64,000 bases of DNA from Gavia stellata (taxonomy: Eukaryota; Chordata; Aves; Gaviiformes; Gaviidae): assembly GCF_030936135.1 (NCBI RefSeq), contig NC_082611.1:12849001-12913000 (forward strand), read 5' to 3'. How positions within the stretch are numbered: position 1 is the stretch's first letter; every line of letters begins with the position of its first letter. Shown piece after piece: positions 3,801-60,700 of the stretch. A model generated the notes under the pieces. The model was not told the DNA's origin. It saw nothing but the letters and a program-made list of their open reading frames with translations, and ran no database searches. A program made the translations under genes and the position numbers.

Positions 3801-6800
3801 CCTCTTCAGAACAATGCTGGGTCCATGCTAACCCCTGAACTGCAGCTACAAATTGCCCGTGAAGCTGCTAGTTGGCCAAGGCTAAAAACATGCTAGGGAC
3901 CATGCTAACACCTTCACGGCAGAAATGTCCAGATTCCAATAACTGGCACCATGTCCTGACAATGTTCAATTTATCTACATTATCTCAGATATTGCTAAGG
4001 CTCAAATCAGTGAAATATCTCAGTGGTACAAGAGTCAGTCCCTGATCCCTAATTCATCCTACTTTCAGTCACTGAGCAAGTGAGGCCATGGGAGTGAAGA
4101 AACACTCCTGCACGTGCAAAGCTCAACCTGGGAAATAATTAATCACACAGATGATTCCAGATTCTGGTGTTCAGTTCTCCCCTGATTTGCCCATGTATCT
4201 GCTGACACTGGTCACTCATGAAAGCAACAAGGATGCGAGGTGGTATGCTCCAATTTAGTAACGTTTTATACGTATCAGGCACAGAGCTATAGGACATACA
4301 TCTGTTCTCCTTTCATTGCCACAGGCCAGCTCGTTTGTTTAAAATAGGCTCAACTATTGCTCCACAACACAGTCAGCAGCACAGATACACTTTCATACTT
4401 TTATGCCAGCAAACTCAGAGAGAGAGCAGAACGTTCCACAACCTCCCGACAAATTCAGGAGCAGAAAGTTTGAGAGCCAGGGCAACCTCCTAATCTGATT
4501 ACCTGTAGGAACTTACATGCAAGAAACTATCATCTTTGCACCCTGGCCCTTCTGCTTCCTCCTCTATCACAGAATCATAAAATAATTGGTCTGTGTCCCC
4601 AAAAGATGTAAAATGGCATCTGGTAATGAAAGTCCATTGTGTTGGTGCCTTAGGAGCTCAGAAGGAAATTAAATGCTAGTTTGCATGCAGACTGGCTTCA
4701 TCACAAACTCATCTAAAAGTCTCTGTTTTGCAAAGCTTTTGGCTTGAAACTACAAAAGTGTTGACAACTACACTTGACCAGCTTATGAGAGGAACATTTG
4801 CAAATAAATTACTTAAAGCAATGATATCCAAACCAAAGACATTAGCCTCACACCTTGATGAGTGACAGGTATAGTATGTTTTGTTAGACTCACTGAGCAG
4901 GAAGCTGTAAATATGTACAGTTTTAAAAACATGTAAATTTCTGGAAGCAGTCACTATTTTACATACAAAGTTATCATATCCTAACACCCAGTGTCTGTTG
5001 AATTTAGTCCAGCCACCATGATAAACTGCTGTTAGATTGCTACATAACTGAGAGGAGATGGTAATAACTTATAGCATGATGACTAAACTAATCAAGCATT
5101 TTTAAAGTGTTTTACTAACCTGCAGAGAAGTTACCTTCTTCATTTCCAGATGACTTAGGATCAAGGAGAGTATACAGATGCAATGGATCGATATCACTGT
5201 GCAGCAAATCAAGATAGCCATTTTCAGACACAAATGCTGAATCCATGATTTGTCTCTTGCTGTCTGAAATCAAACTGCAAAACAGTTAGTTATGACAAAA
5301 CCACAGCTTTTGTCAACCAAAACTACAAGTCCCGCACTGTGGCTTTCTGTCGATAAGACATCGAGATCTTAAGGCTGTGGAACTGGTATTGCTTACCAAG
5401 TCTTGTGTTGAGTGATAACCCCGAGTTACTTAAACTTATAGATCCAGATACAGCTTGCAATAAGACTTATCTATTTTTTTACTCCAATCAGGGGAGTGGG
5501 ATACTGCAGTCTGACCACCTGGACCAAAAGTACCAAGTCTTGAATAAGTTGCAACTCCTGTATCTTTATCAGGATATAAATGATGCAAGCACAGATCCAG
5601 CAGGTATCAGGAAAATGAGAAGACTGCAGTGAAGAAGATGGAAAAAGAATCCCATTTTTTACTGTCAGGACAATTTCTTCTCAGGGGAAGCAGCTTCTGG
5701 CTGGGATGCTACACCCAGTTCCTAAGCCCTGGAGGTGGCGCTAGGAGACATCCCCTCAGCACAAGAAGGAACAGTGAAAGGCGGAACACTTATTTTATAT
5801 AATTCTTTCTCAAACCATATGGTTGACTGTGTACAGAATGGCACGGTCACCTTGGGAATTAGTTTCTGGTAATAGGGCACTCACTGGCATTTTGGAATCT
5901 ATCAATCACAATTATTTTTTAATCAATTTTCTTTCCCCCTCAGGACTTATGTCCATACCTACTCATGAGTTGGGAATTGCTATAGCCTTTCAAGCAGAGT
6001 GCCATGCACTATCCAGACAAATCTGACTGATACAAGGTGCTCCCTGCTCCAGTCACCCATGTTTATATGAGAAATTCTTAGACTGCTGCAGCTACATTTC
6101 TTGATAAAAAGTTTATCTCTTCCTCCACCTCATTTTAAATCCCTTCTATTTCTGTCCAGTTACTGCAGCAGGCACTAGAATAAGCTCATACATTCCTCCT
6201 GGCTATTCCACAGGTAGTGGAATAACACTAGTTGGTTATTCATCATCTTTATCAAACTATTTCAAAAACAAATATTGGCTCCTCAGTGTTCACAGATCAC
6301 TGATATGAATGCCACCTGCGCTGGTGATTCACATAATTTACTCCACTGTAATATTGAGATGCCAGCATGAAATGAAGAGGAATAACCTACACTCAGGTAG
6401 TTCTCCTTTTTCATGTTGTGTGGCCTCATTACTTTACCAAGATTACAAAAATTTGGTATTATTGCCTGCTGTACTATAAATGGAAAGCAGAAGTTGACAA
6501 GCCTGCATGAGAACCAAGAATGAGGTTATAAACATACCAGATTAAATTTTCAGTTTGTTGCAACGTTCTGCTTTGCCCCTTCCTTTTACTGAATTAACAT
6601 AAAATCTAAACAGAGTTGGGCCTTACAGAATGCCAGGCTGCCGGACTTTGTGAATAATGCTGTTGAAGCATTATCTCTGAGTCAATATAATTTTGGGGTT
6701 AGAGACAGAGAAGTAATTGGGCAGAAGCTGTAAGGGGAATTCAAGACCGACAAATGCATCACTCCAAGTTTAGTGGTTAGTAAACTGCTTGATTACAGCA

Positions 6801-12800: not shown

Positions 12801-14229
12801 TTAGATGCTACCATTACAAAAATGAGAAGGAGCAGATACCTTTTCAAGCACTTCAGGGACTTAATTAAAAGTAGAAACCAGACTGTATATACTCCCAGCA
12901 CAAGTGACACTAGGCCACTTGCTATGATATTCTACATTTAAAATATGAATTCCTGGCATTAATTTGAATGTGTGTAATAACAGAGCTAAAATATTCCAGG
13001 TCAGTATTTTGCACTCTCGTGAACTATCTTAATTTTTACTCCAGCATTTCCTTTCGTACTTTCCTCCATGTCTTGAGAAATTATGTCCAATACTGTATTT
13101 TAGGAGAGGAAAAAATTTATACCCCTCACTACGTTGCAGCCCAAGGTCCTTGAATCAGTTTTACAGGACTACCCCAATATTCTACTAAGTATTCTTTTAC
13201 TCTCCTTTTATAGTTGCTTGGTTTTATAAAAGTAATTCTGAATGCTATTATTTAAGCTGGGGTTCTGTCATTTTACATAGGATGGATAATGTTAGGATTG
13301 TCCCAGAGCTATCCCTGTTCTCCAACATATACATTAATCCTCTGGTGGGTCAGACTAAAAAAGTGAGTTTACTGCCTCAGAATTATAAGGTGTCTGCATT
13401 TTTATCTCTCCTGCTGCCTGCTAAAAACCTCAACAGTCTTGAATCCAGCCTCACAAGTCATTAAGTATGTCCCATCCTTAAATCTGCAACAGTCACTTGT
13501 AGACAGTGCAAGTTTGTTGCTTGTAGACATCTGGAATTTAAAGTGGAGAGCATTCATCCCATATATGATTGAAAAGGATAAGAGATTTCCCTACATGAGT
13601 TGCCAGCATGTGCCATGAACAAATGCTACTCAGACTATCAATGGTTGAGAAAAAACTGACCTTATCATGGTCTCTTTAATCTACTTTGCATTTCTCGTTC
13701 TGCAAAAGGTGGCAAAGAACAGGTTTTATTATGGCCTGGCTATGAAAATGGGTATCCGGTAGCTACCCTGAATGGGTGATTCTCTTTTTAGCTGCTCTTG
13801 CATTACATTCTGCTCTCTTCTCTTCCCCACCTGCTCTCCACTGATGTACTTTGCACTATGCCACAATGCAATCTCAAAATGCAATAAACAAAAGTAAATC
13901 TTTAACAAAGCAAAAAAGAAAAAAAAGCTGATTTACCAGAAATGTACTTGCTTCCTGTTGGCTCATTATCTGTCATGTTTTGAGATTTAGTGCCATAGAG
14001 GTTTAAACAACAGAGGGGAACCAAAGTGTTCAAGTACAGGTCCCATTTTTCCACAAATGTCAGAGATATCTTCCTTGCAAGGTCCTCTCTGTCTTTTTCA
14101 TGGAGCATGGTACTCCTTGGATATCACATCTTCTTTCAGCATGAGGTTAAGCAATGAGTGATCATCAGAAGCTGTAGCAGTTGAAAGAATCTTCCTTACT
14201 TCAGGCAGGATTTCTTTAAAGAGATTCAT
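763..14229 (-). CDS. CIITA: CIITA, MHC class II transactivator (5' part, partial)
   Basis: CIITA is the non-DNA-binding NLR-family coactivator that switches on MHC class II genes through the RFX/CREB/NF-Y enhanceosome in the nucleus. Five exons read here (5263-5120, 3449-3321, 2898-2839, 1512-1429, 822-763) join in matching phase. Each boundary is phase 1, except that exon 2 also has an internal start codon at 5246. They encode the acidic activation region: the motif NGYLDLLHSDIDPLHLY matches mammalian GGYLELLNSDADPLCLY, and DASNYDQF, EAYARIAELAEYVLKD and QKCHKR follow in the mammalian order. A distal CARD-like exon lies at 14229-13937. The NACHT and LRR parts are not in the window. The gene is head-to-head with TVP23A, as in human. 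Identity is from recalled mammalian sequence and synteny. Confidence 0.93.
1429..1512 (-). CDS. CIITA: CIITA exon 5 with tandem acceptor
   Basis: The donor is gtaagt after 1429. The acceptor is a tandem tag-cag, so the exon may start at 1512 or 1509, adding or dropping one alanine. It encodes GNLILDEMAAENTEKF, then MQKCHKR, corresponding to the mammalian IEHIGPDEVIGE...GQKSQKR segment. Similarity is modest, but phase and order fit. Confidence 0.82.
2839..2898 (-). CDS. CIITA: CIITA exon 4
   Basis: The acceptor is ccctgctag and the donor gtaaga; 60 bases, phase 1 at both ends. It encodes AELAEYVLKDQQEKQVEDTF, which aligns with mammalian AELDQYVFQDSQLEGLSKDIF. Confidence 0.9.
3321..3449 (-). 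CDS. CIITA: CIITA exon 3
   Basis: The acceptor is ttcattctag and the donor gtatga; 129 bases, phase 1 at both ends. It encodes DPEVDASNYDQFNNMDFLC and, after an acidic stretch, NTIEAYARI. This matches mammalian EPDTDTINCDQF and EAYANI. Confidence 0.92.
5120..5263 (-). CDS. CIITA: CIITA exon 2 (contains the internal start codon)
   Basis: The acceptor is tttgatttcag before 5263 and the donor is gttagt after 5120. The ATG at 5246-5244 begins MDSAFVSENGYLDLL, equivalent to the type IV start in mammals. The 17 bases upstream of it are open and in frame for longer isoforms. The 127 coding bases from the ATG end in phase 1. Several acidic residues (D, E) fit the activation domain. Confidence 0.92.
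5264..13936. other. CIITA long first intron / alternative promoter zone
   Basis: No coding exon was recognised. In mammals the promoters of types III and IV lie between the CARD exon and exon 2, so their counterparts should be here. It contains a C-rich run near 8731-8746 and a poly-T run at about 9068-9085. Two open frames (7110-7604 on +, 9593-9967 on -) show no recognisable protein. Confidence 0.6.
13937..14229 (-). CDS. CIITA: CIITA promoter-I type exon, CARD-like domain, reading frame broken
   Basis: This is homologous to the first exon of the dendritic-cell (type I) CIITA isoform. The start codon at 14229 opens with MNLFKEILPEVRKIL (mammals MNxFQxIL) and continues LLNLMLKEDVISKEYHA, then stops at 14098-14100. 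One frame over, the homology resumes with LHEKDREDLARKISLTFVEK (mammals LLHEPDGDALARKISLTLLEK) and stays open to a donor at 13937/13936. That donor is phase 1 and joins exon 2 (acceptor at 5264/5263) in frame, through six codons, to the exon 2 methionine. Between the two histidine codons there are 4 bases, where mammals have four codons, so about 8 bases are missing. Homology is clear; whether the break is real is not known. Confidence 0.8.
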
Positions 14230-17063
14230 ACCTGCATCTGAAGATGTTTGAAGGAGGTCTGAGCAAAATCTGAACTGTTTGAATAAAATAAAAAAAATCC
14301 ACTCAGTCATCATCAAAAAGATGAAGTGGAAAAAAAAAAGTTAAGAGACTTTGGCCTGTGATAGCAGAGGTATTTCCTCATTTGATTAAGCCTTTAAATA
14401 ACATTTCCAACAAAAAATATCTTCTTGATGAAATGACAACAGCACAATCCTTCCAAGCATTCATAAAACACAATTTTCCAATCAGCAACATGGTCACCTG
14501 AAAAAATAATTTAAAAAAGTATTTATCCCATTAAAGAAGGATTGCTATAGGTGAATCTTTGTGTCCTCACCAAGGTGGAGTCTGGGCCCGTTAGTGGGCT
14601 CCGCAAGGTCATTGCTGAATCAGAACAGTACCAAAAGCTTCAGCACAAAACACATCCTCTGCAAGAGGTACGGGTTTAAAACTTGGAGACTCCAGTGTAA
14701 GATTAGAGATTAGGTTGTGAATAAATTCTGCTTTCATGAAAGTCAAATGGGTTAGAACCAGGATAAAAGCTCTGGGGTAAAAAATTGTCCCAAATCTGGC
14801 TCTGGTTTCTGCCACATCTGAAGTTATTAGGAAAAAAAAAACCTAGGAAACAAGCTGGACGTGACTTCCATATATTCTTATTCAAAGTTAACATACCTAT
14901 ATTCCAAGGGGCAGACACTTGAAGTTAAATCCCTTAAACAGAAGAGTTTTCAAGTCCCCAGTTTAAATAAGTAGCAAATCTTCCATACCACTAAAGACAA
15001 TGTTAAAATACAGCTCCAAACCTACTAAAACTTGAGCCCTCAATTCAGCTCAAAACTATTAAGAAGTCTTTTTTAATATTGCCTTTTTGAGTCATTTATT
15101 GCTCTTCTGTTGTAGAGCTCAAGACTAGGCAGTCTAATTAGGGCTCTTCAAAGACTTCTAAATGCAATCAATAGTGTCTTACCTTTGTCATAAGAATATT
15201 TTTTAACAGGGAGTAAAATAAAGAATGGGTGCCCTCAGACTGGATAACTTTAAAAAGAAAACCCCCAAGTTTTCAGTAAGGAACACAGCAATTTATCTTG
15301 ATCAGATCAGTAAAATGTATATCTACAAGTATTTTTTTTCTTGTTAAGAATGCAAAGATTATTAACCAGTCTTCTATATTGTGACTGCTTGCACAACACC
15401 GAATAAATCTACAAAGCCAACATCAAAAGGGAGAATATCATTAGTTACTAGAACATTAATGTGTTTAACATAAGCACCTCTGAGCCAAATATGAACATCA
15501 GTCATGTTGTAAGCAAAAATAAGGTATATAATCTATGAGCTGGGTTAACTACATTCTGTTAACATGGTTCTTATTCATAGTAGCTACATTTGCTCACAAC
15601 AATTTGTTAAAGATGCAAAGTAAACTACCAATTTTGCTGAGATCTAAAAAATAGTGTAAATGAAACTAATTTTCTCATCTATACAACTTTTTGAAGGCAG
15701 TATGTTCTACATTTCCAGATCTTTGATGATGAAAATATGTTTTATGAGGCTCAAATATATAAAAATTAATATCTAAAATTAAACAGATTCTATCCAGTGC
15801 TTCCTAATTCTGATTTATTTTCCTCATGCCTAATTAAAAATTTCTATTTAATGATCTGTACAGTGTTTTGCAATGGCTTGTGTTTAGGCACTGTTACTGT
15901 TTGAGGAAGAGTACTTCAGTGTTTTGGAATAGAAGCAACAGCGTTATAAAGATGGCAGTGGCTAAATAAATGGTTACCAACTACTAACAATTCACTTTAC
16001 ACTATAGATTTTTTTCTACTTTGCTTTTAGATACCTGATTGTTATAGCAGAATCTACAGCCTTGAAAGAAATACTGGGGCAAAATTTCTAGGGCTGTCTG
16101 GGGGCTTACAGAAGAGATCTTTAAAATCTAGTCTGCTACATGGATGCCTAAACAAGCCTGTAGGCTGAGTACAGCATAAGTACTCAAATGTAATCGAAAT
16201 TATTTTTCTCTTTATTTGCTACTAGGTTTTACTACCTCAGATATTGCAGTGATTTCTTTTCACCATTGGACACATTTGAAAGTGGAGCAATAATTCCACC
16301 TAGTAAGAAACAATGCACTGACAGGAACTTTCTAAATCTTTATAAAACTTTTAAGTACACTACTGCAAATTCTGGTTAAGATCCAAAATATCTTTGTAGA
16401 ATAACAAGAATTTGCTGCTTTTTCCAAACATTCATGTTTATGTTCAGTATCAGGAAGCGCATGCAAAACACTGGAAAAATAAGCTATTTCATTATCCAAT
16501 AGTATGATTTTGACTTGCAGTGTAGGTAGGTAACGAGTTTTACTGTAACTATATAAATGGCAACTGAGAAAAGCAGATTAATTTATTTCCCTTATGGAAA
16601 AGTAAATCCCTTGGATCTTTCACGTGTATTCTTATCTCACTCAGAATTTGTCTTTTAAACGTATGTTCCTTTAAAGTTGCTGCCCACATTGACTCAAAAC
16701 AGAAGAACCATCATTAGTTTTGTTGACATAGGAAGACAAACATTAGTTTTGTTAGGTAGGAAGTATGAGCTTATTCCTGCTTATTCAGAGTAGCATTGCT
16801 CCTGGGGTATTAGGTGAAAAGGACTGTTTCCTTCTGTTTTATCAACATGAAACTGCACTGAATAAGATGCCTCCACTTGTACTTCACCACCTTGTGGAGC
16901 AGAAGACATGCCAAAAGCAGCTAGGGGTTTGCCTTCCAGAAAGTTGAGAACTGCTTGCTATCGTGGCAAATATGAATGAGTTTACCACAGCTTGGGGAAG
17001 AGAGACAGTCTCAATCTCAGCTTCTCCTGCAATCAGTGTGCTCTTGAATGGGTTCAACAGAAG

Positions 17064-27273: not shown

Positions 27274-38316
<11,043 letters not shown>

Positions 38317-39570: not shown

Positions 39571-42500
39571 CTGTGAAGACAGGGAAAAAGTAATACAAAT
39601 AATATTTCAGTTGCACAGCAGGAGTTACGTTATTGCTGCATCACTCTGTCCCCTGTTGGCACAAATATCACAAGTTGGGCCTTTATCACAGTGAAAATGG
39701 CTTTAGGAATTTCCCAGCTGTTTGTATTTTTAAGCTGCACATCACCGGCTTCTTAGGTAGTTTTTATATGTTTTTTTGTGCAATTACAATTAGAAGCGGA
39801 GGCAGTAACTAGCCAGCTGTATTGCCCTCAGCTATAGTGAGCACCCCTCAAGAGGGCTGCCTGAGAACCTTAGAACTTTTCTGTGAGAGCAAGTACACAC
39901 ACATCTGTTCTGAAAAGGAATGACTGAAGCCAAACATAAAAACCAGTTTTTGAATACAATTTCCTTATCCCTTTACAAGCCTGTCGTAACTGATGCCCAG
40001 AAGACGGGAAGATTGTATTTGCATCTGTTACTTTCAAAACTGCTATGCACATCTACTGTTTTTAGTATTTCTGGCAGAATAACATAATTCTGTTTAGCAC
40101 CTTCATATATTGCAGAAGTGCTCAGAACCGAGAGGATTCATCTGCACACTGATTTTCAGACTTACTTTGAATGATATTCCTGTAAGACGATGTAGCTGGA
40201 GACTCAGGTGCTTCAGACAAGAATGACTGGCCTTTGTCACAACTTTTTCCTTGAAGGACAGGGAAAAACATGAAAGCAAAGCAACGGGAAAAGATGAAGT
40301 TTTCTTTGTTTTACCCTTTATCCCGCTACCAGTTATATCCTTCCAAAGAGCCACTTGCATCTATTCCTTTTGAGAAGTCCTTATGTCAGTAGCATAACTA
40401 GAACTACACCTTACAGCTTTACAAAGGATACTATTAGCAGAAACCTTCAGTCATTATTTTGGAAGTACTGACCTGTTCCTTGATGTCACTAAATCAAGCA
40501 TTAATTGCTAATAGCTGGTGGGCAAGGAACCAAGCCTTCTCACTACCCACAACAGAATTTGGGTGGTGCCAGTAACAGTGAAGTTAAAGCACTAGTTTTA
40601 ATGCTTAACGTCTACAAGGTATTATTCTTCATAGTGGTTATGATTTTATTCAGTCTGCACTTGCAGGTGATTACAGCAAAGAGAAAGACATGTTGTACTT
40701 CCAGTATGATTATACAGCTGAAAAGATGCACCATCTAATCTTAATCAAGTTTCAGGCTAAGAAAATTATCCTAGCACTTCCCTCTTTTCACACCGTGTTA
40801 TGTCACAGTTCCAGTAACTTCTGATTCAAAAAAAAATGTTCTGTCTAAAAGTGGATATTTACCTAAGAGATAAAATGTTTAATATTCTAATTTATCAGTG
40901 TCCAAGCCAGGGTTTTCCAGTAGTAACATCAGTATAGGAGGAAAAACTTGTTTTAAATGTAGCACAATACAGTAACTTTACCTATTTGAGGATCTAGAGG
41001 CACTTTACCCAAGAGGGAAACATTTAAGTTCTGGCACATCTTCTCTGCACCTCCAGTAGTTGGGGGAAAGATCTGAGACTCATTCTGGGACAACATGAAA
41101 ATCAGTTAAAATATCGCAATTCTGAGAGCAAGGCATTTTTGGAGCAATGTTTTATATACAAACAACGTCAAGATAAAAAATGCTGTAAGATGCAGATAGC
41201 CTTACCTTACACTTTGGACATATAAAGCCGCTCATATTTTCCACAACACCTATGATTGGCAGTTTCACTTTATGACAGAAGTTGATCTCCTTCCGAACAT
41301 CCTGAAGCGATACTTCCTACAAGTATTAGGAAACACTGCTATTTTGACTGTAATGTTTTGATGCTGAACCCATTAAGTTACATCCTTAGAGCTATTTTAA
41401 AGAAAGTTCATAATGAATTATTAGCGCTCTCTTTGTATTTTGAAGAACGTAAACCTGTGTTATGTGCCATAGCAACAACTCTGAGTAGCAACAGAACAGG
41501 TACAGCAGCTCTAGCCTACTGAATGTGGTTCTGCTTTGAAATCTGACTCGAGTCCAGTAAAGATTCAGCCGTATTTATGTTTTACTCCTGTATTAATCGC
41601 ATATCTTTAGTTCTTTAAATGTAACTTTTTCACATTTTCAGTTTACAGAAGGCCTTGGCATTCTTAATAGACCAGGCAAGGGCAAGAACCACCAGGCTTA
41701 CGCTTGTTACCTCTTTTCGAATAGCTTATCATCCCCTCAGACTTTTCGCATATATGCCTGACCTCATTCAGTTCTCCTGTTCCCTTCTCCTTCCCTCACC
41801 ACCTATCTGATTTCGCCCTCAATGTTTCACTTCCTTTACATTTTATTCTTTCAGCTGTTGTGGAAATACTAGATGTCTTTTGCTAGTTTGAGCTCCTGTT
41901 CCTTTCCAAACCAGGCTTTAAAACCTACGTTTGAATTTGATTTATTTTGAGTTTCAGCTCTCCAGGGGCTGATTTTTCTTTTAAAAATGCACATCACAAA
42001 GTTGCCTACTGGGGGCAACAGGCTGCTTCACGCTGTGTCAAACAGTGCACATCTTATCCCTTAAAAACTGAACTTCTTACTGACTTCTGAACATCAAGCC
42101 GTTGGTGAGTAAATTACAAATTTGCAATGATGCAAACCCTAGTCTTTAAGAAGGAAGCGAAATACTGCATTTCTCTCTACCACACAGCTTTTGATTGTGA
42201 ACTGCTCAGCGGTTTAGTGAACCACTCAGATCCCTGACTCCACTGAGGCACCCATCTAACTCATAAACCGGCCAGCTGTAGGCACAAAACAAGAAAGTCA
42301 ATTCCCTTAGTTTCTGCACCACCATTTCTCTGAAGTTAAACAGAGACTCTAAACCAAGGATTGGCTTTAACTGCCATGATGCTTCTACCAACGGAAATTA
42401 AGTTCTCATACCTGAGGGGTAGTGATTATAACAGCACCATCGATGTGCGTTGCGCTGAGATACTGCACAATAGATAAGTGTTCATCTGATGTTCCTGGAG

Positions 42501-45190
42501 GCGTATCTACAATCAGGTAGTCGACTTCACCCCAGTCCACGTCACGAAGAAATTGTTTGATCAACCCTAAGAGAAAGGATAAGAACGTGGAAGAGAAAAA
42601 AAAAGTATCTCCCTATATTTCAAATTTTAGGGCCTACTTCAAATTTTGTAGTCTAGGTATGCAGATTCTTCTGACTTGTCAACTTAAGCACAGAATTGTT
42701 TGTTTTGCCAAAGCTTTAAAAAAAAAAAAACCAACCACAAACCCAATACAGCATTCGACGTGTTAACTTCATCAAATGGTTATGTTCAACTAAAGAAAAT
42801 AAGTAACCATTCACTCATTTTTTTCTATAGCTTACTATACTATATTTATGCTATTAATTAAACAAGCTCATGATACGAAATCTTTCAAGTACATAAATTG
42901 TTGTTGAAACCACTTGATACATACCATTTTTTTTCGGTCCTCTCCAGATGACAGCATCATCAGGGCTACTAAGCAAAAACCCCACAGACATAACACCTAA
43001 GTTTTCTTCAACGTACTAAAAGAAAAGTAGAGAAACTCAGTAGAGCATACCAAACAGTAAAGAGAGAGTAGAGAAACCAACTCTAAACCCAGATTTTATA
43101 GAAAAAGCAGTTGGGGGGTGGGGGAAGACATTAAGAAAATAAAGGCGGAGAACCTTATGCTTCTCTCTTATCCAAGGGCATTAAAAACTACAATTTTTGT
43201 GCAATGCTCACCAACTACATTCACAGACTGAAAAAAATCTAGTTGTAGTAGGATTGACAGTGTTTTATAGAATCACTGGAGTCAGCGTAAGGATAGAAGC
43301 AGCTTTCCCTCTCAGCATCAAGTTGTCTTTTTAACAGCATACACACTAAAGGTGATCTTTAGACAACAACACTCCTGCAAAACTTCCCCTGCACTTTCTA
43401 AAGATTAATGAGGTTCTCCTTGGGTGTAAGATACTTTTTGTCTGTCACAAAAAAGGTGACACACTGTACAGCTGCATGACAACCAAAAATAATGAAATCA
43501 AGTAACTTATATTTATTGCCCATAGTATAGTAGGAAAATCACTAAACAAGAGATACTTAAAATAATGAAACTCTTTTAGGAATGTAGTATTATTAAGTTT
43601 AACAAAAGAAATTTAATACTCTGATGTATGTAGCCTATAGGTTTATGTCATTAGAAAAAGAATTAACAGAAGTACCCCCTGCTCCTCCCTCACTCGTTTT
43701 TCACCTTGGAAGGCAGTGCCCAACCCAAACAAACCCAACAAACTTTCTGAAACAGTTGCACCAGCACCAGCTTACCACTGGAGACCATCCAGATCCACTC
43801 TGATGAACCTGAAAATTGAAGTGATGCATAAAGTTAGGTTAGAAATAAATATAGACGTTACCTAAACACAAACGTAAGTCAAAACTGGTTAAACGGATGT
43901 CCTGCCTATAGGTACAACACTGCTTTATTAAAGCAGCTGAGTTAAAAACTTCAGAAGGGCCAGACCTCCATTTGTAAGTGAATAACAACTGTTAACCCTT
44001 TTACAAGAAATTTACCCATGACTTTATATATTTATATAAAATATTCTAGGGCTGATAAAGAGAATCATGTTAACATTACTTAAGTTTTAAGTAGTCACAA
44101 ATATGCGGCTGATACGGAGCAAATGCTGATTTACAGAACTGGTCATCCTGAATGCAGATAACTCTTTTACAAACCAAATTACGCTGAACTTCTCCATCTC
44201 ATCTTCATCATCTCCCTACCCACTGCCACACTCATTTCCCAATAAGCTGTCCTTTTAGAAGCTTCAAGGCCACAAAACCCTAACACATTAATGACAAATT
44301 GAGCAGAAATCCTTTAAACAACATGTTCAAGCATTCACTTACCTGTTCGCCTTCTAGACCCATCATTTTAGGGATTGATGGCCCACAGATATCTATGTCC
44401 AGCAGAGCAACCTGGGAAACAAACACACCAACCCACCCCACTGGAAACAAGCTTGCACAGGGCTGCTCCCAAAGTCTAAATCTCGCAACAAAAGCACTCT
44501 CGCACACTTAATGCGGGAAATGTGTTCAAACCCTTAGGGAGAAGGGGAACTCGATCAGCGCAGCCACACCATTGCTTGGTTATCCCAGGTGGGCCGCAGG
44601 GCCGGAGCCCGGGGGCACTACCCGCAGGTGCTCGCCCCTGCCAGCTCCTCCCGCCCGCGGCTCGGGGACCCTCCGCCTCCCGCCTTCAAACCGCCGCCCC
44701 GCCCCGCCCCGCGCGGCCCACCTGCTTGGCCTCGTCCGCCGCCAGCCCGTGAGCCAGGAGAGCGCTGAAGGTGCTCTTCCCCACGCCGCCCTTCCCGGAG
44801 AGCACCAGGATCGTGTGCTTCACCGAGCGCAGCCGCTCCCGCAGCTCGGCCGCCTCTGCTGCGGGGCGACACGGCCGCGGTCAGCCGCCGCCCGACCGCG
44901 CCCCAGGCCCCGCCCCGCGCAAGCCCCGCCCCCGCCCCTCAGCGCCCGCCCCCTCAGCTCCTCCCTCACCCGGGTCCGGGGCCGTGGCGCCGGCAGCGCA
45001 GAGCCTCTGGTTGGGGCATCCCTGGCAGGCGGCGGCCCTGCCCGCTTGGGCGCTGCTGGTCCCTGGGCAGGCTGCAACAGACAACGTTAGCTGGAGCGCG
45101 AGTGCCGGTGGCGGCCGCGGCCCGCCCGCCCCGCACGGCCGCGCCGCGCCCCTCACCCTCCGGCCGCGGCCCGGCCGCCGCCTCAGCCAT
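39518..45190 (-). CDS. NUBP1: NUBP1, cytosolic Fe-S cluster assembly factor (Nbp35 family), complete
   Basis: NUBP1 forms with NUBP2 the scaffold P-loop ATPase complex that builds 4Fe-4S clusters for cytosolic and nuclear proteins. Eleven coding exons (45190-45157, 45071-44970, 44858-44722, 44411-44343, 43808-43776, 43015-42925, 42566-42412, 41316-41206, 41084-40982, 40249-40166, 39570-39518) join in consistent phase to 972 bases, 323 residues (human 320). Key sites are the N-terminal cysteines C13, C27, C30 and C36 (CX13CX2CX5C), Walker [10 protein letters not shown] at 67-75, DIDICGPS near 96-103, [13 protein letters not shown] near 173-185, and the CPKC cluster ligand motif at C240/C243. 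All expected motifs are intact. It starts in a CpG island and is divergent from TEKT5. Confidence 0.98.
40166..40249 (-). CDS. NUBP1: NUBP1 exon 10
   Basis: The acceptor is ctgtccttcaag and the donor gtaagt; 84 bases. It encodes [20 protein letters not shown] and then SYRNIIQ. Confidence 0.96.
40982..41084 (-). CDS. NUBP1: NUBP1 exon 9
   Basis: The acceptor is ttgtcccag and the donor gtaaag; 103 bases, ending in phase 1. It encodes [20 protein letters not shown] and then [14 protein letters not shown]. Confidence 0.97.
41206..41316 (-). CDS. NUBP1: NUBP1 exon 8, CPXC cluster motif
   Basis: The acceptor is acttgtag and the donor gtaagg; 111 bases in phase 0. It encodes [20 protein letters not shown] and then [17 protein letters not shown], with the bridging-cluster cysteines. 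Confidence 0.97.
42412..42566 (-). CDS. NUBP1: NUBP1 exon 7
   Basis: The acceptor is ctcttag and the donor gtatga; 155 bases. It encodes [20 protein letters not shown] and ends [12 protein letters not shown]. It holds the conserved [10 protein letters not shown] motif of the family. Confidence 0.97.
42925..43015 (-). CDS. NUBP1: NUBP1 exon 6
   Basis: The acceptor is cttttag and the donor gtatgt; 91 bases, ending in phase 1. It encodes [20 protein letters not shown] and then [10 protein letters not shown]. Confidence 0.97.
43776..43808 (-). CDS. NUBP1: NUBP1 exon 5 (33-base microexon-sized)
   Basis: The acceptor is caattttcag and the donor gtaagc; 33 bases in phase 0. It encodes [11 protein letters not shown], identical to the recalled human segment. 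Confidence 0.95.
44343..44411 (-). CDS. NUBP1: NUBP1 exon 4
   Basis: The acceptor is gtttcccag and the donor gtaagt; 69 bases in phase 0. It encodes [20 protein letters not shown] and then GEQ. Confidence 0.97.
44722..44858 (-). CDS. NUBP1: NUBP1 exon 3, Walker A; tandem acceptor
   Basis: The acceptor is ccccgcag, followed at once by a second cag, so the start is 44858 or 44855. The donor is gtgggc. It encodes [20 protein letters not shown], containing the P-loop, and ends ADEAKQ in phase 0. Confidence 0.96.
44970..45071 (-). CDS. NUBP1: NUBP1 exon 2, N-terminal Fe-S cysteine motif
   Basis: The acceptor is gtctgttgcag and the donor gtgagg; 102 bases. It encodes [18 protein letters not shown] and then PNQRLC, giving all four cysteines of the N-terminal 4Fe-4S site. 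Confidence 0.96.
45157..45190 (-). CDS. NUBP1: NUBP1 exon 1 (coding part)
   Basis: The ATG at 45190 begins [11 protein letters not shown], with donor gtgagg after 45157; 34 bases, phase 1. The next exon joins in frame to the conserved CPG motif, which supports this start. Confidence 0.92.
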
Positions 45191-48500: not shown

Positions 48501-49398
48501 TTGTCTTGCATTCAACCTAGAAGAAATCTGTGCTGATTTAAGAACTCTTAGGATAGTGAAATACAGCGCCTAATTACAAATAATTACTTAAGTTCAAAAT
48601 TCTTGGCATAGAAGATGGGTCACAATGCAATTTTAGAGCGCTGAATTTCAGAAAGTTTTTTGCCAGACAGGCCAGAAGGCTGGAAGGAAAAATTAGAAAA
48701 GTTATCTAAGAAGTTACTCAACATTTTAAACTGGACAAAAATCATCATCAGAGGAAGGTCTCTCCCATTTTTTATACTTTTTATGGAAGACGAATACAGT
48801 TGAGGGGGAGAGCAAAGCCTGAGATAGTTATACTTTTTTTTGTGTCCATTTGGACCAAACCATCTGCAGAGATCACTAGACAATCGTAAGAGATGACTCC
48901 CAGAGTCTGTGTTTCTGTTCAAAAGACTTGTCTCCACTGCTGCACTTCCCTGCAGCCACTAACTGATATACGTGAACCACTCTGAAGTAAAATTTCTATT
49001 TCATTTTGCTCAAGGTAAGCTCACCGAAGGTAAACCCACACACCCATCCAGAGTGACCCTTCAGCAAACCCCTCTGCACTCTAAGCAAATGGTTTGACAC
49101 CGTGTCTAGACCTCCGGGTGCCAACACGCACAGCACTGCTCTGCAGGGGAAAGCACTGCTTCTTTGCAGGAAAAACAACGTGCCCTAGGAGAGGAGGTAT
49201 GAACAGAGAGGCCTGCCGGAATGCCGGAACCCAGGCGGCTTTCAGCCTGCTGGTGGGGTGGAACAGCCCTCAGAGTTCTGTGACACCTCTGCTGTGTCAC
49301 AAGGCACTGCGCAGCCCCGAGAAGGGTGGCAGAAGCCCTGGGGCTGCTCAGAGCGGCTGCTGGACAGCCCGAGGGCGGCTGCCTGAGCCCAGTGCAGG
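45582..49398. other. NUBP1-TEKT5 intergenic region
   Basis: No gene was recognised. A strong plus-strand acceptor (ttttatttccccag, ending near 48434) is followed by an open stretch of 28 codons, which could be a non-coding or alternative exon. The TEKT5 promoter should lie near 49.2-49.4 kb; no TATA box stands out. Confidence 0.55.
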
Positions 49399-57734
<8,336 letters not shown>

Positions 57735-60700
57735 GTAAGATTCACTAAGAGTTGGCAGCTGCATATTATCTTAGTTGTATTTGAAAGGCACAGAAATCTT
57801 CTCCAGTGTTTACATCCTTCCTGAATAAGCACCTCCTCAAAAGATATACCTGCATTACCTGTCCTCAAACAGTGCATTTGAATCACACAGCCTGAGAACA
57901 GCTCACTCGGAGACAGGCAGACTGACAAGATGACAAGGTTTTACAAGGAACTATGCAACATCTGTCCACAATCACACACTGTTTATTTTCATTTGCAACT
58001 TACATGTTTAAAGTGGGGAAAGATATCTTAGATGGTATTTTTTCTATTTTACATTTATAGATTATATTCCCTGGCCCTTTCCTGATACAGAAATAGTACA
58101 TGAATTACTTTTTTTCTTTTTCCTTTTTTTTTTAAACAGTGAACTAACTTTGGAAAGTGTGCAAATAAAAATGCCCACAAACAGCAGCACATCTATCTGT
58201 TTTAGAGGAGAGAGAAGACTAACTTTTTGCACTTTCATTTTGCAGCAGCAAGGGAAGAGCCCTAAATTAACTAAAATTTACATATAGAATGTCGTTAGTC
58301 TACCTTTGACACCTAAGTTGCAAGTTTTCCTTTCCTTTTGATAAATACATTTCCACATCTTTAACCTGAATTTTGGCCTGGTTGTGGTTGGAAACAGCCT
58401 GATGTTTTGGAGTGCGTCAGACAGTGACCTTTTCAAACATTTGTTCTGCCTTTGTCTTCGTATTATACAAAGCAGAAATGGCACAGAAGGAGACAGACCT
58501 GTATTAATCTCTATCTGTATTGCCTTTCCAGTAAGTTTTTGCGGAAATAAGTGAAATGGTGTAAGTGTATTGGTTGAATTTTGAAACATACATTCCGAAG
58601 TTAACAAGACATGCTGCCTTTGTACTGACAGATAAAATTTTGTTAAGGTAGCAAGACTCACTACTACTTTCATATGACTTCAGTCAGAGTTCAGTAAGTT
58701 CTTCTGTTAAGACTCTTTCTCTTAAGAGGAACCTTATGTTCACTCATTTGTTTCAATGCACATTTGGAAACAATAGAGTTTTCCTGCCATTCGATTTGCC
58801 ATAAGTAGTTTAAGACATTTTCAGTCTATTTTTAGGGACTCTTAGGAAAGCACAAACTAACCAGGTAAATATGTGTGAAGTCACAGCACATAATGTTCCC
58901 CCCGCACCCTGCCTCTGCTTATAAAGCATGAAGGATGTTGAATGTAGTTTTTTGTGTGTTTTAGATTGTATATGATCTAACCAACTACAGCACTTTATCC
59001 CTGTCCATCCATCTAAGTTTCTCATGCATTTAAATCTATGAACATTTGCTTCACATTTTCTATTAACCTTTTCTAGTGCCCCTTTTATCAAAGAACAGGT
59101 AGCATAAGGTAGAACAGGGTGCACATATGGAATCACAAAGTACATGGTGAGATACCAACATACGAGCAGTGATTTTTTTGTCACGGAGTCCAGCTGACAC
59201 GATGACATAACTGCTGACAACTGGTATATAATGGGAAACAACAGCGTTTATGTCCCTATACTGTTACACCATTAAATAGCAATGATAAGCTATCTGGAGA
59301 AACTTGAGTAATCATATTTGTATAAAGAATAATTAGTTTGTATGGTATACACAGATAAAAAAAGTATCAAATAAGATGGCACTCTGAACTAATGCTGCTG
59401 TTACTGCTGGGTTACTAGTTAGCACATATATAGCAGAGATACTTTACTCATCGCAAGCTCCATAGTAATGTCATTACATCAGAATAACAAAATGCTAGAG
59501 GAGAAGAAAACGGCATATACTGGTGAGGAGTAATTCAGGCTGGTCAGTGTTGTCAAAGGAAAAGAAAATACAATAGGTTTACTGAGCAAAACCACTGCTA
59601 GTTAAGATGTGGGTGAAGTTGTATGGTAGAAATCCTATTAATTCTCTTGCTTATGACCATACCTCAAAGGACAAGAGAAAGGAGAAGGCAAGTGAGGGCA
59701 GAAGGGAGTAAGGAGTGAGTGCTCATTTAAAAGCTATCTATAGGTAAGCATAACGGAGTACCCTTACTTCTTTCTCCAGGCTTGCAGTACAGCGTGCAAT
59801 AATTGAAGAAAAAAATATTGCTAGCATATGCTTTAATAAGACAGCCAATGGCTGTCTCAAATTCTTTCACACTTCTGGTTCCTCCATTAGGATGTAAGTA
59901 TAGTCAAATGTGGCTACTACAGTTCCTGTTCCCTTCACATTTAACAATTAGACAATGGGTACCACAATTTTGGTTTTTGTGTTTAAAAAAGTCAGTCAAT
60001 CTTTCAAAGGCTGTTTTTGCACTGACTTCTCAAGCAATGAATGCCACTCTGTGACATCCTTCTTTCCGCCAAATTATTTTCCTAGATAAGCAGGCTAGCT
60101 CCATAAAATGAGAGGAAAATGAACATAGAAAAGATTAGCTATCTTAGAACTGGGAAAAGCTATTAATTTAATGAGATCTGGAGCCCATTTCAGAATGAAA
60201 AATACTTTTCTAATTTATAAAACAGCAAAATCTCTCCTAGACAAAACTACAGGGAACGTCCTGCAACCATTTGTTTCTTAAATCAGTACCCTGAAAAAGG
60301 AAAGAATCAAAATACATAAAAGAGTAAATAGTGTGAAGATGATGATGATCTAAAAATTATCCTATATTGAAATGGCACATTTTCTTCTGTATTTCACTTG
60401 TATGTAAAAGATCAGCTGGTTAAAATTACAAACCAAATGCCTAATACCTCAGCTCATGGTCCACTGCATGCTCTTTAGCAACACAGAGCAGCAGGCAGAA
60501 CAGTTTGTCTTACATTGTAGATTTCATCTATTGGCCCTAGAAAAATTTAGTTTTCCTTTGGAACGAAGCTTTTTATAAAAACTCATCTAATTAGATTTAA
60601 AGTCTGGGATCGGTATGCTGTACTAGTGTCTGTCATTGATACTGTGGTGGCAATTTTGCTGTGTGCTATGGTTAGCATTTGTCATCTACATATTTAAAGT

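What the first reader, a model, noticed from the sequence alone, without database searches (positions are those of the whole stretch)
14098..14130. Reading frame of the CIITA CARD-like exon is broken
Homology to the mammalian type I exon runs in one frame up to KEYHA, then stops at 14098-14100. It resumes one frame over at LHEKDREDLARKISL and stays open to a good donor. The two conserved histidine codons are 4 bases apart, where mammals have four codons, so about 8 bases are missing. If real, this bird cannot make the CARD-containing dendritic-cell CIITA from this start. The downstream ATG at 14108 could give a short, CARD-truncated version.
Basis: partly seen in the sequence, partly recalled or inferred. 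Interest (0 to 1): 0.75.

Follow-up and report, generated by a model that had tools for sequence, protein, structure and literature searches.

The report
Broken CARD exon in bird CIITA
In this bird genome, the optional first exon of an immune master-switch gene carries a small reading-frame break that should remove one version of the protein, while the parts of the gene that could be located look intact, so the effect is probably mild and raw reads are still needed to prove it.

Summary
On the minus strand, ATG 14229 opens 43 codons that stop at 14100-14098. Similarity to the mammalian CIITA type I (CARD-like) exon continues one frame over, from ATG 14108 to a donor after 13937. Independently of homology, only the second frame fits the phase of shared CIITA exon 2 (5263-5135). 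Key new evidence is a published duck CIITA coding sequence of 1215 codons (PMC5572338), amplified from spleen with a forward primer based on predicted chicken CIITA. That primer matches 14229-14210 at 17 of 20 bases, the three differences silent. So this exon appears to be a working start in duck, and the break here is derived, or an assembly error. The CIITA exons located (those matching residues 61-336 of human CIITA were not found) and those of TVP23A and NUBP1 show no other frame change. Exon 2 has its own in-frame ATG in a strong context, so CARD-less CIITA is still encoded. Mice lacking promoter I and its exon are only mildly affected (PMC7866136). Best reading: an ordinary, probably recent loss of one isoform. 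Reads and other birds' DNA could not be examined.

The parts
14101..14229 (-). First part of the CIITA type I (CARD-like) exon, original start codon at 14229; 43 codons, MNLFKEIL...KEYHAP
   Evidence: duck cloning primer matches 14229-14210 at 17 of 20 with 3 silent differences
14098..14100 (-). TGA that ends the original frame after 43 codons
14100..14109 (-). Place of the net loss: two histidine codons (14109-14107 and 14102-14100) lie 4 bases apart, where the mammalian exon has 4 codons between them
   Evidence: mammalian peptide recalled
13937..14108 (-). Second part of the exon in the +1 frame from ATG 14108, LHEKDREDLARKISL...KYIS, ending at the donor with one base over (phase 1)
13931..13939 (-). 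Splice donor CTG|GTAAAT after 13937
   Evidence: 3.2 bits on a recalled matrix
5135..5263 (-). Shared CIITA exon 2; acceptor AG at 5265-5264; phase fits the ATG 14108 frame, giving ...KYIS-DSKRQIMDSAFVSENGYLDLL
5244..5246 (-). In-frame ATG of exon 2 in a strong context (A at -3, G at +4), equivalent to the shared mammalian start
   Evidence: mammalian use from PMC10505679
14226..14237 (-). Three-codon upstream reading frame (MQV, stop at 14228-14226) overlapping the original start codon

Best explanation
This is the myeloid (type I) first exon of the CIITA gene of a bird. A small deletion, net 8 bases, has broken its frame. A transcript from this promoter would make a 43-residue fragment from the original start, less than half of the roughly 106-codon extension. 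It could still make CIITA without a complete CARD-like region, mainly from the ATG in shared exon 2 and possibly from ATG 14108, which the deletion itself puts into the frame of the rest of the gene. Core CIITA function is therefore probably kept and only the CARD-bearing isoform is lost, in this species, lineage or individual. Shown: the frames, the splice phases, the open state of the CIITA exons located. Reported elsewhere: an open duck frame, whose start at this codon I infer from the cloning primer. Inferred: that the deletion is real DNA, that the transcript exists, and which starts are used.
For: Two collinear homology blocks meet at the frame change. Splice phase supports the second frame only. 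Duck coding sequence of 3648 bp / 1215 aa from spleen, cloned with a primer at this ATG that was based on predicted chicken CIITA; the window's three differences from the primer are all at third codon positions (chance 0.018). Exon 2, a 1.7-kb NACHT exon and later LRR exons are open, and the gene's end matches the duck reverse primer at 18 of 20. The five TVP23A exon matches and the NUBP1 exon matches show no frame change inside exons. The 401-base stretch has one match in its 1.32-Gb assembly, itself. No long homopolymer at the break. Mice lacking promoter I and exon 1 have a relatively mild phenotype (PMC7866136).
Against: No reads, second haplotype or other bird's DNA could be examined, so an assembly error or rare allele is not excluded. 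The rest of the exon shows no further decay, as would also be expected if the frame were really intact. A run of five A begins at 14098, and the break lies in an imperfect 13-base direct repeat (14097-14109 and 14131-14143, 77%), so the site is not featureless. The duck paper's domain prediction named NACHT and LRR, not a CARD; Pfam and PDB sequence searches do not recognise a CARD in the two parts or the read-through protein. The CARD label rests on similarity to the mammalian exon. CIITA exons matching human residues 61-336 were not located. No expression data.
Confidence: 0.66

Rival explanations
1. Assembly or consensus error: the genome has the intact exon and 8 bases were lost in the sequence record.
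For: No second lesion in about 100 codons. On assumed neutral rates (typed in, not measured) a broken exon would gain a second stop or frameshift with a half-life of about 12 million years, so an intact exon plus one error fits as well as a recent loss. Duck keeps the frame open. An imperfect 13-base direct repeat and a run of five A lie at or beside the break.
Against: The loss is of 8 bases, unlike the usual single-base homopolymer error (general knowledge). No other frame error was seen in the coding exons located of CIITA, TVP23A and NUBP1.
Confidence: 0.2
2. The deletion remodelled rather than destroyed the isoform: ATG 14108, with A at -3, now starts a type I CIITA with a 63-residue extension to the exon-2 ATG that keeps the second half of the CARD-like region, and this is used and kept by selection.
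For: ATG 14108 is in frame with exon 2 through a phase-1 donor. 57 codons are open and the block after the break is the better conserved one (66% against 46%, recalled query).
Against: Five ATGs come first: 14237, 14229 (G at -3), 14165, 14142 and 14129. Half a CARD is unlikely to fold (general knowledge). One lesion with an intact remainder is also what a recent loss looks like.
Confidence: 0.1
3. The frame is rescued by programmed +1 frameshifting at CCA-UGA-A, as in antizyme genes.
For: A +1 step at the TGA would join the two blocks (sequence).
Against: The 81 bases from the stop on are no more structured than shuffles (z = 0.30). The duck frame, if as reported, needs no such rescue.
Confidence: 0.01
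4. The exon was never a functional coding exon in birds, and the match is a fossil.
For: None found beyond the break itself.
Against: A duck spleen coding sequence apparently starts at this codon with an open frame. The differences from the primer are silent.
Confidence: 0.03

Closest known systems
Mammalian CIITA isoform I (promoter I exon, CARD-like extension of 101 residues)
   Same: Position as an upstream alternative first exon, a phase-1 join to shared exon 2 (tested in the window only), alignable sequence on both sides of the break, and a shared in-frame ATG in exon 2
   Different: The frame is interrupted after 43 codons by a net 8-base loss
Duck (Cherry Valley) CIITA coding sequence, PMC5572338
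   Same: Same start codon and first residues MNLFKEI by the cloning primer; matching end of the gene
   Different: Duck is reported with 1215 codons; here the frame from that start is closed
[quoted passage not shown]
   Same: Loss of the type I N-terminus with the rest of CIITA present
   Different: The mice lack promoter and exon; here the exon is present and only its frame is broken

Membership tests
CIITA gene | NACHT exon and C-terminal LRRs similar to CIITA, downstream on the same strand | tested here: met
   tblastn of a recalled human CIITA, E 3.7e-116 over query residues 337-890, plus LRR exons; residues 61-336 not located; neighbours TVP23A, NUBP1 and a tektin gene
CIITA type I first exon | First exon upstream of exon 2 with its own ATG and similarity to the mammalian CARD-like extension | tested here: met
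   duck primer match 17 of 20 (second-best place in the locus 15 of 20)
CIITA type I first exon | One open frame from that ATG through the donor into exon 2 | tested here: not met
   stop at 14100-14098; phase 2 instead of 1 at the donor
CARD domain | Recognisable CARD (death fold) by profile or structure | tested here: inconclusive
   no Pfam match for either part or the read-through, no PDB sequence match; AlphaFold model helical but mean pLDDT 48.5
CIITA type I first exon | Transcribed in myeloid cells | not testable with these tools
   no expression data held for this species
Fixed loss-of-function variant | Same deletion in reads, other individuals or sister species | not testable with these tools
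   the own assembly has no relatives in the tool, and the other collections hold phages, plasmids, viruses and prokaryotes

The most novel reading that the evidence does not exclude
The 8-base deletion acted as an isoform switch: it destroyed the original start's frame and in the same event put ATG 14108 in frame, giving this lineage a myeloid CIITA with a half-CARD extension and a 43-codon upstream reading frame that tunes its translation.
Probability: 0.07. Interest if true: 0.55.

Novelty: new member of a known kind. Interest (0 to 1): 0.35.

Why it matters
CIITA controls MHC class II genes, and the need for the CARD-like extension of its myeloid form is, in my view, unsettled: it raised transcription somewhat in assays, yet mice without promoter I and its exon are only mildly affected (PMC7866136). 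A bird lineage that lost only this extension would be a natural test of whether the CARD is needed. If the break is an assembly error, it is a caution for bird immune-gene catalogues.

Tried and rejected
Alternative splicing as a rescue: two donors scoring above the annotated one lie after 14232 and 14200 (4.3 and 3.6 against 3.2 bits), but neither gives the phase-1 end that exon 2 needs. An alternative exon-2 acceptor 11 bases upstream was considered by eye; it cannot help because the stop comes earlier. Programmed +1 frameshifting: no unusual RNA structure in 81 bases after the stop. Domain recognition: Pfam found nothing in the two parts or the read-through protein, PDB sequences nothing, NCBIfam one irrelevant hit far below its cut-off. 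A single-sequence AlphaFold model was too poor to compare with solved folds, so no fold search was run. A search of the own genome for relatives of the read-through protein did not complete.

Paper searches (the lists showed 20 of 38, 20 of 104, 40 of 81, 1 of 1, 15 of 410, 15 of 42, 8 of 9,468 and 10 of 284 papers) showed one avian CIITA cloning paper and, among the titles and abstract starts listed, no report of a broken type I exon in birds. Most subscription journals are not held, so this is weak evidence of absence.

Decay clock: the substitution rate (2e-9 per site per year), the transition bias and the indel fraction are assumed, so the 12-million-year half-life is only a guide. The splice-donor matrix is recalled.

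Full report
The finding concerns the minus strand around 14100. From ATG 14229 a frame of 43 codons (MNLFKEILPEVRKILSTATASDDHSLLNLMLKEDVISKEYHAP) ends at TGA 14100-14098. One frame over, from ATG 14108, 57 codons (MLHEKDREDLARKISLTFVEKWDLYLNTLVPLCCLNLYGTKSQNMTDNEPTGSKYIS) plus one base run to a donor CTG|GTAAAT after 13937. The query is recalled, so the identities (46% before, 66% after) are approximate.

The locus is CIITA. Shared exon 2 lies at 5263-5135. Outside the window, on the same contig of the own assembly (G000, 1.32 Gb, 1185 contigs; window = C18:12849001-12913000), lie a NACHT exon, matched without a stop over 1716 bases (E 3.7e-116 to recalled human CIITA), then LRR exons and an end reading SRISV. 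Exons matching human residues 61-336, the poorly conserved acidic and proline/serine/threonine-rich part, were not located, so the gene's integrity is shown only in part. Upstream of CIITA come TVP23A (plus strand), NUBP1 (minus strand) and a tektin gene (plus strand), the order that I recall for human chromosome 16. The 401-base exon region has one match in the assembly, itself.

Splice phase gives evidence that does not depend on homology. Exon 2 begins with 17 bases before its ATG, so it needs a phase-1 donor. The donor at 13937 is phase 1 for ATG 14108 and phase 2 for ATG 14229. Joined, the second frame reads ...KYIS-DSKRQIMDSAFVSENGYLDLL. The stretch from ATG 14229 to the exon-2 ATG is 310 bases; eight more would make 106 codons. 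Reviews give 101 residues for the human type I extension (PMC10505679, passages; PMC7866136, passages).

The strongest outside evidence is a paper on the Cherry Valley duck (PMC5572338; passages, section 5). Its CIITA coding sequence of 3648 bp, 1215 residues, was cloned from spleen RNA with primers based on predicted chicken CIITA. The forward cloning primer is ATGAATCTTTTTAAGGAGAT. Its best match in the 44.6-kb locus examined is window 14229-14210, 17 of 20 bases, with all three differences at third codon positions and silent; the second-best place has 15 of 20. The other three CIITA primers match at 18, 17 and 18 of 20, with second-best places at 14. The chance that three of 20 differences fall only on the six third positions is 0.018. 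That the coding sequence begins at this primer is my inference from primer and length; the first 20 bases of a clone are the primer's own. On that reading duck, and by prediction chicken, start CIITA in this exon with an open frame, and the broken frame here is derived, or an error in the record. The duck paper names NACHT and LRR domains; in its main text the word CARD occurs once, in CARD9.

Is it an error? I could not test reads. Against an error: the change is an 8-base loss, and the coding exons that I could place of TVP23A (five), NUBP1 and CIITA show no other frame change. Two NUBP1 matches contain a stop in stretches without a good counterpart in the query; I read these as intron, without checking the splice sites. 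For an error: about 100 codons on both sides carry no second lesion, a run of five A starts at 14098, and the break lies in an imperfect 13-base direct repeat with 14131-14143, which could help a real deletion or a faulty consensus alike. With assumed neutral rates a second lesion has a half-life of about 12 million years; survival without one is 0.57 at 10 and 0.10 at 40 million years. So the break is recent, or polymorphic, or not real, or the exon is still under selection in some form.

Consequence. On a transcript from this promoter the ATGs in order are 14237 (3 codons), 14229 (43 codons), 14165 (9 codons), 14142 (same frame as 14229), 14129 (1 codon), then 14108, which is in frame with the gene. 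If the ancestor had eight bases more here, ATG 14108 was not in that frame before, so the deletion created the in-frame start. Exon 2 has a further in-frame ATG with A at -3 and G at +4. [quoted passage not shown] I therefore expect CARD-less CIITA, with a half-CARD form as a minor possibility, and some loss of mRNA by nonsense-mediated decay (inference). Alternative donors after 14232 and 14200 do not restore the frame. The RNA after the stop is no more structured than shuffles (z 0.30), giving no support to programmed frameshifting.

The cost to the bird is probably small. PMC7866136 (the section on regulation of CIITA gene expression) states that mice lacking promoter I and its exon had a relatively mild phenotype, with dendritic-cell expression shifting mainly to promoter III; the same review says the CARD extension increased MHC-II transcription somewhat. 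The primary mouse paper was not held; I saw its title only, in reference lists. Loss of an immune gene in single bird lineages has precedent: MDA5 in storks and rallids (PMC8619217, abstract and outline only).

Limits. The CARD label is inherited from the mammalian exon: profile searches and a weak single-sequence structure model did not confirm it. No other bird DNA could be searched here. The verdict is a confirmed frame break in the sequence record, most likely a real but ordinary loss of one isoform.

Noticed in passing
14226-14237: A three-codon upstream frame (MQV) overlaps the original type I start codon, and a donor-like site (CAG|GTATGA after 14232, 4.3 bits) lies across the same bases; its use would remove the whole coding part of the exon.
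   Followed up: partly
14097-14143: The break lies in an imperfect 13-base direct repeat (14097-14109 and 14131-14143, 77%), a possible aid to deletion or to misassembly.
   Followed up: no
27366-37819: TVP23A, plus strand: five exon matches to a recalled human protein, residues 3-188, none with a stop or frame change.
   Followed up: partly
40155-45069: NUBP1, minus strand, matched by a recalled human protein; two of the matches include a stop in stretches that look like intron, splice sites not checked.
   Followed up: partly
49387-57824: Tektin-family gene, plus strand (Pfam Tektin E 7.9e-23 and 7.9e-20), probably TEKT5 by gene order (recalled).
   Followed up: no
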